NCBI GenBank assembly: GCA_024648695.1 | Contig: JACAVV010000017.1 | Location: 1-64,000, forward strand | Reading direction: 5' to 3' | DNA: 64,000 bases | Source: Nitrospina sp. | GTDB lineage: Bacteria > Nitrospinota > Nitrospinia > Nitrospinales > JACRGP01 | Part shown: piece by piece, positions 32,520 through 58,667 of the stretch | Position numbering within the stretch: position 1 is the first letter of the stretch | Layout: the number at the start of each line of letters is the position of its first letter | Made by a program: the position numbers and the translations under genes | The notes under the pieces: generated by a model | Seen by the model: only the letters and a program-made list of their open reading frames with translations | What the model was told of the DNA's origin: nothing | Database searches by the model: none

Positions 32520-32565
32520 ATTGGTCGGGGCGAGAGAATTTGAACTTCCGACCACCTGAACCCCA
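32520..32565. repeat. left copy of the 46-base tRNA-Pro direct repeat
   Basis: It matches 58622-58667 in 44 of 46 bases. It covers the CCA end to the anticodon loop of the tRNA, and similarity stops at the anticodon. Confidence 0.85.
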
Positions 32566-32566
32566 C
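32522..32566 (-). pseudogene. 3' half of a tRNA-Pro gene (displaced fragment)
   Basis: Read on the minus strand this is the 3' part of a tRNA: the end of the anticodon loop, the variable region, T arm and acceptor strand to CCA. It matches the intact tRNA-Pro at 58624-58701 in 44 of 46 bases over 32520-32565. Both substitutions fall in the T stem and spoil one pair, and the 5' half is absent. The two copies have the same orientation. The 3' half lying downstream of the complete gene is what is left when a mobile element integrates into the 3' end of a tRNA gene. Confidence 0.85.
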
Positions 32567-32742
32567 TCCGAATGGGAATAGTAACTTATCTAAAAATTTA
32601 GGCATTTGCTGACGCCCATTACGCTTTTGACCCTATAAGACCGTATAGGACTTTAATGGATCCCTTCAAATCCCCGCGGGAATCATTTTTAGTGAACTGT
32701 AAAGAGTATGGATGATAGCTAATACTAAAAAATTTCAAAAAC

Positions 32743-34104
32743 TTAAAACACATGGCTCACCATGATGAATCCCCAATCGGCGTCAGTGTTGTTTGGAGCG
32801 CCGGTTCTTCCTCCGACATGGTGCATCAAAGGATCGGCGGCGAATATGGAATAGCCGCCCACTATGGTTAAACTTGGATCAAAGTGATAAATCAGGGTCA
32901 GATCCAACTCCTCTCCCAGGTGACGCTCGCCGATGAGTTTTGCAGGAACCACTCCAGCATGGGCATTCACAGCGGTCCAAAAGAAATGGAGGTCGGCTCG
33001 AACGGTGACTTTTTCATGTGGCTTCATGGAAAACTTTAATGCAAGATCCTGAAGCCCCATCGAATCCGTATCCGTCACAGAACTGCTGTTTCCATCAGGT
33101 CGACTCTGACCCAGCAATACAAAACGGTCCATGAACCCATAATACTTATGACCATTCCCAAAATCCGGATTGAAGGCTTTGAATACCTTATCATCCTCAT
33201 CGTCACCGGAAACATAATCGTACCAGACGGCGACGGAGGGTTTAAACCGCGCCTTAAATTTCTTTCCTATACGCACACCGAAAAGAAAGGCGCTTCGCTC
33301 GGTCCCCTTTTGACCGCCAAACAAATCGGCATCGCCAAACTGGTAATACCCTTCAACTCTATAATCGAACCAGGAATTTCTTCCCGCCTGCCGAAGCCCT
33401 AAAGTGTAACTGTCGTTATCGGGAAGGATCTCATTTTCAAAAGTGTCACTATCCCGATAAACAAAATAGGCGGAAAAATCCCCTCCCAATATGCCTTTAT
33501 AATTACCCCAGAAAGTATGGACCACATCGTCGGTACTATCCTGGATGGTCTCGCTTCCATTTTCATTAAACTGGGAAAAGAAATACATTAAGGTGTGTTT
33601 TTCACCTTTGTGCCAAATAGAGACACCGTCATGACTTAACGCTTCCTGGAACCAACCATTATTCCCAAAAATTCTCTGGCCATCGAGAATCATCTCCTGC
33701 CGTCCGATTTTGAATTCCAAAGGAAGGTTCAGTAAACCCTTTGCAACAACATAGCCTTGATGAATCCCAACCGATTCATCCAAATCCAGAAAACTGGAAT
33801 TGGTTTCCACAGTGCTCCCAAAGCTATCAGTTCTATCGGACCCAAAAACGTTAACACTTTGAAACTGGATAAAGTTGCTTACCTTATCATTAACCCGAGT
33901 ATTGATATTGACTCGGAAGCGACTACTTAAGAAATGAAAGGTATCGGTTTCGGAATTAAAATCCCGGTCCCGAGCTTCCCAGCGAGGACGGACCTGACCC
34001 CCCAGGCGAATGTCTATGGCTTCGACAATTTGAGGGAAAACCAATAGACCTATCCAAGCCCATACCCAAAAAAATAGTTTAAATTTATAAAAATCGATCT
34101 TCAT
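32743..34104 (-). CDS. alginate-export-like outer-membrane beta-barrel protein
   Basis: This 453-residue protein has a signal peptide at about 8-28 (ending VEA) and alternating beta strands throughout. The opening IRLGGQVRPRWEARDRDFN and the segments HFLSSRFRVNINTRV and EFKIGRQEMILDGQRIFGN fit the alginate-export/AlgE-like porin family, and it ends WGFIMVSHVF with a C-terminal Phe as outer-membrane barrels do. No alginate or other polysaccharide synthesis genes are nearby, so the cargo is unknown; it may export an extracellular polymer or import anions. It is divergent from the 5368-residue surface protein gene, sharing a 347-base intergenic region, and lies inside the putative island. Confidence 0.72.
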   Translation of the reverse strand: MKIDFYKFKLFFWVWAWIGLLVFPQIVEAIDIRLGGQVRPRWEARDRDFNSETDTFHFLSSRFRVNINTRVNDKVSNFIQFQSVNVFGSDRTDSFGSTVETNSSFLDLDESVGIHQGYVVAKGLLNLPLEFKIGRQEMILDGQRIFGNNGWFQEALSHDGVSIWHKGEKHTLMYFFSQFNENGSETIQDSTDDVVHTFWGNYKGILGGDFSAYFVYRDSDTFENEILPDNDSYTLGLRQAGRNSWFDYRVEGYYQFGDADLFGGQKGTERSAFLFGVRIGKKFKARFKPSVAVWYDYVSGDDEDDKVFKAFNPDFGNGHKYYGFMDRFVLLGQSRPDGNSSSVTDTDSMGLQDLALKFSMKPHEKVTVRADLHFFWTAVNAHAGVVPAKLIGERHLGEELDLTLIYHFDPSLTIVGGYSIFAADPLMHHVGGRTGAPNNTDADWGFIMVSHVF

Positions 34105-34451
34105 ACCAAATGGCCCTGGTGGAGAATATAAAATAATATCATCCCAATAATTCCTAATTCCAAAACCTGTTCGTGGTCATCTTGTCCATAACTCCGATAA
34201 TTTCAATCTCAAACCAAATAAAAAGTTTAGTAAAGTGATTGTAACTAAAGGCTTTAATAGAGTACCAAAAAAATAACCTAAAAGGGGTATAGATTGAATT
34301 TAACTTTGTTTGTAAAATAATTCGGGATAAAAATTTAACGACAACTCAAAAAGCAAGTTATTGAAAACCCTTATTGAGTATCCCTACGATATTAAAACCA
34401 ATAGATATGATGAATAGTTAGATTAACCGAATTATATACCATTAAGGTCCC
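34105..34451. promoter_or_regulatory. divergent promoter region of the porin and the giant surface protein gene
   Basis: This AT-rich 347-base interval separates two divergent start codons. I see no strong ribosome site before the ATG at 34452 and no clear operator or hairpin. Promoters for both genes should be here. Confidence 0.5.
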
Positions 34452-58479: not shown

Positions 58480-58583
58480 ACCGGATGATTACTTTATTAA
58501 AATTAATAAGGGTATGTAGGACTTCTTGAATTTTAGTCATGGGGTCGGGACAATTCAAGAACCATAAATTTAATTGGAAAAGA

Positions 58584-58618
58584 AAAAGGGCCTAAAATAT
58601 AATACTTTAGGCCCTTTT
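58584..58618 (-). terminator. rho-independent terminator of the tRNA-Pro gene
   Basis: AAAAGGGCCTAAA pairs perfectly with TTTAGGCCCTTTT across a nine-base loop. On the minus strand it lies five bases past the CCA end and is followed by a T-run. Confidence 0.88.
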
Positions 58619-58621
58619 AAA

Positions 58622-58667
58622 ATTGGTCGGGGCGAGAGGATTTGAACCTCCGACCACCTGAACCCCA
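58622..58667. repeat. right copy of the 46-base tRNA-Pro direct repeat
   Basis: This is the part of the intact tRNA gene (CCA end to anticodon loop) duplicated at 32520-32565 with two mismatches. Confidence 0.85.

What the first reader, a model, noticed from the sequence alone, without database searches (positions are those of the whole stretch)
32520..58667. A 26-kb segment is bracketed by a tRNA-Pro gene and its displaced 3' half
The intact tRNA-Pro(GGG) on the minus strand (58624-58701) recurs as a 44/46-base direct repeat at 32520-32565 that covers only the 3' half and stops at the anticodon. Its position downstream of the whole gene is exactly that expected when a tyrosine-recombinase element integrates into a tRNA 3' end and leaves the displaced end behind. 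Both copies also keep a downstream terminator hairpin. The contents (a porin and two giant surface proteins) are typical accessory genes. No integrase is seen.
Basis: partly seen in the sequence, partly recalled or inferred. Interest (0 to 1): 0.8.

Follow-up and report, generated by a model that had tools for sequence, protein, structure and literature searches.

The report
Integrase-less genomic island at tRNA-Pro
A 26-kb block of surface-protein genes in a Nitrospinota bacterium looks like a mobile DNA island that once slotted itself into a tRNA gene and no longer carries its own insertion enzyme; similar broken tRNA copies sit beside gene blocks in many relatives.

Summary
An intact tRNA-Pro(GGG) at 58624-58701(-) and a same-orientation 3' half at 32522-32565 (42/44 identical; next best window match 24/44) bracket a porin and two giant surface proteins. 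The left copy is not isolated: in DNA fetched from Nitrospinota relatives I found 25 further non-tRNA tRNA-Pro 3' halves matching at 37/44 or better (20 of the 26 are UGG-type, 3 GGG, 3 CGG); 22 of the 26 start in the anticodon arm. Some form tandem arrays, and integrase genes or remnants lie about 95-145 bp from intact tRNA-Pro genes in five genomes, one at the orthologous tRNA in the same family. Four phage records match exactly nt 34-78 of this tRNA, three with an annotated integrase nearby. Integration by a tyrosine recombinase at the anticodon arm is the best explanation (0.85). Not supported: the predicted empty site (tRNA-Pro joined to DUF3565-dabA) was not seen; no integrase and no arm-site repeat remain, and composition gives no clear sign. 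The segment is probably an old, non-autonomous or decayed island: a new member of a known kind. The clade-wide pattern is the more interesting part.

The parts
58624..58701 (-). intact tRNA-Pro(GGG), regenerated target gene (att site, proximal)
   Evidence: ARAGORN; a tRNA-Pro(GGG) stands beside cupin-rSAM in 18 of 19 rSAM loci examined, the window's own included
58584..58618 (-). terminator hairpin after the intact tRNA
   Evidence: z -5.9
58529..58540 (-). 12-mer identical to the start of DUF3565 on the left side; unexplained
   Evidence: 2 of 5000 shuffles reach 12
32522..32565 (-). displaced tRNA-Pro(GGG) 3' half from the anticodon to CCA (att site, distal)
32481..32512 (-). terminator hairpin after the displaced 3' half
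   Evidence: z -5.5
32743..34104 (-). porin-like protein, Pfam Alginate_exp, 453 aa
   Evidence: E 1.4e-30; own-genome paralogue 54% on C12, best-scoring segment in relatives at most 50%
34452..50558 (+). 5,368-aa surface protein, FG-GAP repeats and Calx-beta domains
50950..58479 (+). 2,509-aa surface protein, BACON/Ig-like domains; shares its C-terminal 186 aa (69%) with the 5,368-aa protein
   Evidence: no full-length match in 60 relatives
32242..32445 (-). DUF3565 protein, first gene outside the left end
   Evidence: E 6.6e-27
29014..32034 (-). dabA, flank outside the left end
   Evidence: E 4.3e-264
58972..61129 (+). cupin and B12/radical-SAM genes, conserved flank outside the right end

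Best explanation
The 32.5-58.7 kb segment is a genomic island left by site-specific recombination at tRNA-Pro(GGG). A tyrosine recombinase joined an element carrying its own tRNA-Pro 3' half to the chromosomal tRNA gene; the crossover lay in the anticodon arm. The incoming 3' half restored the tRNA at 58624, and the old 3' half with its terminator was pushed to 32522. The island today has a porin and two giant, probably calcium-binding adhesin-like surface proteins, and no recombinase. The att-type junctions are shown; the recombinase, the order of events, the function of the cargo and its arrival with the island are inferred. The integrase was either lost after integration or supplied in trans (as for a cis-mobilizable element); the data do not separate these.
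For: Same-orientation displaced 3' half on the expected side. In the window plus 126 fetched loci, 30 distinct tRNA-Pro 3' ends are not tRNAs by ARAGORN (3 more cut by contig ends were dropped); 26 of 30, from 19 genomes with the window's included, match an isoacceptor at 37/44 or better (20 UGG, 3 GGG, 3 CGG), and 22 of those 26 begin at tRNA nt 28-37 (many loci were chosen because they had extra matches, so this is no prevalence). Control: tRNA-Pro gives 23 3'-only matches (start nt 22 or later, end nt 76 or later) in 16 genomes in a truncated list, 22 at E<=1e-8, one lying 28 bases from a contig end; tRNA-His in the same 61 genomes gives 7 in 5 genomes (end nt 71 or later), 3 at E<=1e-8, one of those cut by a contig end. 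Phage_integrase matches lie about 95-145 bp from intact tRNA-Pro in G004 (same family, orthologous GGG tRNA, partial), G009, G024, G036 and G054, and an integrase ORF lies about 1 kb from the GGG tRNA in G036. In G051 and G054 (different genera) 204 bp ending at the tRNA 3' end, about 160 of them element, are 95% identical, while what follows differs. G047 has the same arrangement at this tRNA with a 1.9-kb segment and terminators that differ at one base in 46. IMG/VR contigs L250-L252 hold the identical 44-nt GGG 3' half outside any tRNA, L250 and L252 beside a tyrosine integrase. Phages IPK, P24, Eeyore and Flotzy match this tRNA at exactly nt 34-78 with 87-98% identity; an annotated integrase lies 0.14-0.8 kb away in the three annotated ones.
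Against: No integrase or remnant. No empty site in relatives. Most parallels are at the UGG tRNA, only 3 of 26 at GGG, the window's included. An exact direct repeat follows 23 of 91 tRNA-Pro 3' ends (17 of them of period 12) against 2 of 90 control stretches, but neither window end has one. GC3 of the three genes lies in the range of flanking genes; the 44.0-50.6 kb part of giant1 is richer in G+C (54%) than the flanks (44-46%), which may be its domain composition. The cargo families have their closest relatives in the same genome. Terminator sequences differ between intact and displaced copies in G026, so the terminator is not always part of the repeat. A 12-mer beyond the terminator is shared by both sides, which the simple att model does not predict.
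Confidence: 0.85

Rival explanations
1. Composite locus (compatible with the integration event itself): the left fragment marks one old integration, and the giant genes arrived or grew later by homologous recombination or local duplication inside the island.
For: The two giants share a C-terminus (69% over 186 aa); partial paralogues of giant2 lie on C4 and C11 of the same genome and of the porin on C12 and C2; no element ends other than the core were recognised.
Against: No third tRNA-Pro fragment in the window, and in the genome the 24-nt 3' end occurs only at these two places and at the UGG and CGG tRNAs, at up to 3 mismatches.
Confidence: 0.3
2. Segmental duplication: a stretch from the anticodon through the terminator into the start of DUF3565 was copied, with no recombinase.
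For: The DNA after CCA aligns on both sides, mainly over the terminators (score 28, maximum of 1000 shuffles 25), and the 12-mer at the DUF3565 start recurs about 77 and 84 nt from the tRNA end.
Against: Beyond the terminator the alignment is not above chance (329 of 2000 shuffles reach it); the anticodon-arm boundary recurs in other genomes and in phages; repeats including the terminator also occur in G047 and G009 C70.
Confidence: 0.07
3. The left copy is a relic of a second, unrelated tRNA-Pro gene that stood upstream of dabA.
For: tRNA-Pro 3' ends lie 0.94-7.4 kb upstream of dabA in G024, G051 and G054.
Against: Those are UGG-type; the left copy is GGG-type and stops at the anticodon, and the DNA where its 5' half should be is 26% identical to the tRNA, that is random.
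Confidence: 0.04
4. Assembly chimera at one of the repeat copies.
For: The genome is a 56-contig draft and a repeat is an obvious misjoin point.
Against: The repeat is short, and the same arrangement is seen in other assemblies; no reads could be checked.
Confidence: 0.04

Closest known systems
Islander-type genomic islands in tRNA genes (PMC4383910; abstract and passages seen)
   Same: Regenerated tRNA plus same-orientation 3' fragment mark the ends; an anticodon-centred crossover is one of its two tabulated classes (2083 of 3919 islands).
   Different: Islander filters for an integrase gene; none here.
ssrA genomic islands of Dehalococcoides (PMC3146451; passages seen)
   Same: Tandem islands bounded by repeats of an RNA gene's 3' end; 15 islands there lack the integration module and are discussed as possible cis-mobilizable elements.
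   Different: Target is tmRNA, the repeat is 20 bp, the recombinase is a serine recombinase.
Additive flexible island with tRNA-Lys 20-nt repeats in Methylophilaceae, and tycheposons (PMC10872708; passages seen; the original tycheposon paper is only recalled)
   Same: tRNA 3'-end repeats precede variable cargo segments; tRNA target.
   Different: Other tRNAs and a shorter repeat; tycheposons are defined by a tyrosine recombinase that is absent here (definition partly recalled).
Phages with a tRNA-Pro attachment core: Escherichia phages Eeyore and Flotzy, Alteromonas phage P24
   Same: Match exactly tRNA-Pro nt 34-78, near an annotated integrase.
   Different: Complete phage genomes; the Pfam matches of the three window genes are porin and surface-protein domains, one of them a domain that Pfam names 'Viral BACON'.

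Membership tests
tRNA-borne genomic island (Islander definition) | intact tRNA and displaced fragment in the same orientation, 3' fragment downstream | tested here: met
tRNA-borne genomic island (Islander definition) | fragment begins at a known crossover subsite (anticodon loop or T loop/junction) | tested here: met
   boundary nt 35; phage matches nt 34-78
tRNA-borne genomic island (Islander definition) | integrase gene inside the island | tested here: not met
cis-mobilizable element | attL and attR without recombination or transfer genes | tested here: met
   three large genes only, Pfam domains of porin and surface proteins
cis-mobilizable element | a related element with recombinase uses the same att site | tested here: inconclusive
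   in the clade yes; in this genome no Phage_integrase match on the contigs of its three tRNA-Pro genes
cis-mobilizable element | can be excised and transferred | not testable with these tools
   no reads, no strain
tycheposon | insertion at a tRNA gene | tested here: met
tycheposon | hallmark tyrosine recombinase | tested here: not met
prophage | phage structural or replication genes | tested here: not met
   Pfam only, on the three large ORFs; PHROGs was not run

The most novel reading that the evidence does not exclude
Nitrospinota run a clade-wide, largely integrase-free cassette system at their three tRNA-Pro genes: cargo segments of about 2-26 kb or more with standard ends (tRNA-Pro 3' half, usually a terminator, often a period-12 TGGSTARCA-like repeat after it, and one of a few shared distal ends) accumulate in tandem and are moved in trans by tRNA-Pro integrases. 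The giant adhesin island of this window would be one such cassette that has become fixed.
Probability: 0.3. Interest if true: 0.7.

Novelty: new member of a known kind. Interest (0 to 1): 0.45.

Why it matters
It offers an explanation of how one Nitrospinota genome came to hold very large surface-protein genes next to a tRNA, and it points to tRNA-Pro as a recurrent gene-acquisition site in a phylum for which I found little on such elements: a search for Nitrospinota, mobile genetic element and tRNA listed one paper, on toxin-antitoxin systems, and one for Nitrospin-, integrase, tRNA and genomic island listed 6, none on this by title or start of abstract. Segments beside tRNA-Pro fragments in relatives carry metabolic genes such as an aldehyde dehydrogenase, a molybdopterin oxidoreductase, and an Oxidored_q6 subunit in a cluster that looks hydrogenase-like, so the site may matter for niche differences. 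Whether integrase-free cassettes move in trans is directly testable.

Tried and rejected
Looked for the empty site in relatives: the tRNA-Pro(GGG)-cupin-rSAM side is conserved, the other side is variable; no DUF3565-dabA junction found. Looked for an older tRNA fragment elsewhere in the window: none. Looked for integrase remnants with Pfam and with nine integrases: none. Looked at composition: GC3 unremarkable, 44.0-50.6 kb richer in G+C, not decisive. Looked for the direct repeat seen after other tRNA-Pro genes: absent in the window, so the segment cannot be tied to an integrase family. Thought at first that homology runs from the tRNA into DUF3565 as one duplicated block; the post-terminator alignment is not above chance and only the 12-mer stands out. 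A CGG-type search of IMG/VR gave nothing; the UGG-type one gave 6 contigs: 4 with an intact tRNA and 2 with a non-tRNA copy beside an integrase ORF, clear in L245, weak in L248. Besides the four phages cited, the other listed rows are longer matches, many of them annotated tRNA-Pro genes; one record was not listed. My notebook says 14 genomes for the tRNA-Pro partial matches; recounting the rows gives 16. My notebook says 27 solid and 3 decayed fragments; the recount gives 26 and 4.

Full report
ARAGORN reports a single tRNA in the window, tRNA-Pro(GGG) at 58624-58701 on the minus strand. No shuffle of 100 gave a match, and the next best ungapped 44-mer in the window is 24/44. The left copy is not a tRNA: the sequence where its 5' half should be is only 26% identical. 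Both copies are followed by stable hairpins with a T-run.

Contents. Between the two ends lie a 453-aa Alginate_exp porin, a 5,368-aa protein with FG-GAP and Calx-beta domains and a 2,509-aa protein with BACON and Ig-like domains; the two giants share their last 186 aa at 69%. No full-length match to the 2,509-aa protein occurs in 60 relatives; 39 of 61 genomes (this one included) have some match, most listed hits being to its C-terminal part of about 150 aa. The porin family is found in 44 of 61 genomes, with the closest match in this same genome (54%). GC3 of the three genes lies within the range of flanking genes, but the 44.0-50.6 kb part of the largest gene has 54% G+C against 44-46% in the flanks. 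Adhesin or pore roles are inferred from domains only.

Taxonomy. Of 35 named loci matching the radical-SAM flank, the 29 at 72% identity or more are labelled Nitrospinota, Nitrospinia, Nitrospinaceae or Nitrospina, two of them Nitrospirae; the six others (26-33%) are Planctomycetota or unnamed. The window is the first 64 kb of contig C5 (106,955 bases) of a 4.2-Mb, 56-contig genome. None of the 60 relatives searched is of the same genus; four are of the same family.

The right side is the conserved side. In 18 of 19 rSAM loci examined, the window's included, tRNA-Pro(GGG) stands within about 1 kb of cupin and rSAM; G031 is the exception. The other side varies. Among 16 genomes compared over at most 16 kb, five of family f3 share a neighbourhood downstream of the tRNA, partly shared with G020 and G047, whose common gene pair starts 3.5 to 11.7 kb from the tRNA; this genome and G004 had no match to any other (in this genome those 16 kb are the giants). 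The 977-aa gene of that neighbourhood has its best matches here on contigs C29 and C33, none on C5. The predicted empty site was not seen: no DUF3565 or dabA hit occurs in the 17 relative loci with this tRNA in the DNA fetched, which for some was under 4 kb. In relatives DUF3565 is found in other places.

Parallels. A 24-nt pattern search and a full-tRNA search (list truncated) showed extra 3'-only copies. In 127 sequences scanned (window plus 126 fetched loci), 30 distinct 3' ends are non-tRNA by ARAGORN; three more, cut by contig ends, were dropped. Of the 30, 26 match at 37/44 or better (19 genomes; 20 UGG-type, 3 GGG-type, 3 CGG-type) and 22 of the 26 start at tRNA nt 28-37; the others start at 16, 24, 26 and 45 (the one at 16, in G016, may be a nearly whole decayed tRNA). 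Four are weaker, 29-35/44. Three of these lie about 0.65, 1.1 and 5.6 kb downstream of the GGG tRNA in G050, G007 and G022 and may be decayed copies. Many loci were picked because one search showed extra matches, so these numbers are not a prevalence. As a control in the same 61 genomes, tRNA-His gave 7 3'-only matches in 5 genomes, 3 at E<=1e-8 (one cut by a contig end), against 23 in 16 genomes for tRNA-Pro, 22 at E<=1e-8. The tRNA-Pro query covers three isoacceptors, so part of that ratio is expected.

Element ends. In G051 and G054 the 204 bp ending at the tRNA 3' end (about 160 bp of element plus the core) are 95% identical and what follows differs. Four G060 fragments, and more weakly G026 and G006 of other genera or families, share a second end; G060 and G018 share a third, which includes the end of a reading frame. 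Displaced and intact copies also share the terminator in G047, G009 (C70) and largely G006, but not in G026. After the terminator, 23 of 91 tRNA-Pro 3' ends carry an exact direct repeat by my test, against 2 of 90 control stretches and 2.7 expected from shuffles; 17 of the 23 have period 12, mostly TGGSTARCA-like, five have other periods and one is a run of N. The period-12 repeat follows the tRNA in the integrase-bearing elements of G009 (C70) and G013 and follows several integrase-free fragments of G060. The window ends have none.

Integrases. Phage_integrase matches lie about 95-145 bp from intact tRNA-Pro genes in G004 (partial, same family, orthologous tRNA), G009, G024, G036 and G054, of 20 genomes searched. 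Integrases with an Arm-DNA-bind_3 domain are in the tRNA-Pro elements of G009 (UGG) and G013 (CGG), and a shorter relative (33-36%) lies 1 kb from the GGG tRNA of G036. By contrast the G060 contigs with six fragments, the G047 1.9-kb segment and the G026 18-kb segment have no Phage_integrase match. This genome has five Phage_integrase matches, none on C5, C23 or C38 where its tRNA-Pro genes lie; of three inspected, one sits at a tRNA-Arg and two are remnants.

Phages. The identical 44-nt GGG 3' half occurs outside any tRNA in three IMG/VR contigs, two of them beside an integrase; the one in L252 is 43% identical to the G009 and G013 enzymes. Their hosts are unknown. Among phage records, IPK, P24, Eeyore and Flotzy match this tRNA at exactly nt 34-78 with 87-98% identity; an integrase is annotated about 0.14 kb away in Eeyore and Flotzy and 0.8 kb in P24; IPK is unannotated. 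This is the strongest independent sign that the window's left copy is an attachment core.

Reading. I conclude with 0.85 confidence that the segment's ends are products of tyrosine-recombinase integration at the anticodon arm of tRNA-Pro(GGG). I cannot say whether the integrase was lost or acted in trans, nor whether all three genes came in together. Two points do not fit well: the lack of any empty site, and the 12-mer ATGACTAAAATT shared about 77 and 84 nt from the two tRNA ends, which is the start of DUF3565 on the left (2 of 5000 shuffles) although the rest of the post-terminator DNA is not alike beyond chance.

Known kinds. Islander describes this signature but filters for an integrase (PMC4383910, abstract and passages). 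Dehalococcoides ssrA islands include 15 without an integration module (PMC3146451, passages). Methylophilaceae have islands preceded by 20-nt tRNA-Lys repeats, and tycheposons (PMC10872708, passages). The window's segment is thus a new member of a known kind; the Nitrospinota-wide array pattern is what could be new.

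Noticed in passing
L155 and L156 (G060 contigs C31, C57): Tandem array: four tRNA-Pro 3' fragments spaced 3.1, 5.8 and 5.7 kb and two more 4.7 kb apart, with cargo such as aldehyde dehydrogenase, dienelactone hydrolase, molybdopterin oxidoreductase and a dioxygenase, and no integrase match on these contigs.
   Followed up: partly
window 29014-32034; L093, L094, L095, L097, L189: dabA lies close beyond tRNA-Pro 3' ends: 0.5 kb here, 0.94 kb in G024, 0.98 kb in G051, 7.4 kb in G054, and the cluster end about 9 kb away in G006, out of 29 genomes with a dabA match of 70% or more (35 with paralogues); a dabA paralogue in G046 is 0.6 kb from a fragment.
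   Followed up: partly
window 58529-58540 and 32434-32445: 12-mer ATGACTAAAATT, the DUF3565 start, recurs at almost the same distance after the intact tRNA and nowhere else in the window.
   Followed up: partly
L170 about 4824-4935 (own genome C38) and several relatives: Period-12 direct repeat (GGCTAGC type) after the terminator of tRNA-Pro(CGG) in this genome, like those of integrase-bearing elements in relatives.
   Followed up: partly
L151 (G026 C63): 18-kb segment between tRNA-Pro(UGG) and its displaced 3' half carries a cluster that looks hydrogenase-like by eye, and no integrase (only an Oxidored_q6 subunit was confirmed by Pfam).
   Followed up: partly
G005 C24:197413-211752: tRNA-His in G005 also has a displaced 3' part about 14 kb away on the same strand.
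   Followed up: no
window 12306-17333: 1,675-aa ORF whose G007 homologue (76%) lies about 11 kb downstream of the GGG tRNA there; possibly a trace of an older shared neighbourhood.
   Followed up: no
L171, L172, L173 (G024, G036, G054): Almost identical integrase (96-100% over shared parts) directly beside tRNA-Pro(UGG) in three genomes, complete only in G024.
   Followed up: no
window 44000-50558: This part of the 5,368-aa gene has 54% G+C, clearly above the rest of the window.
   Followed up: no
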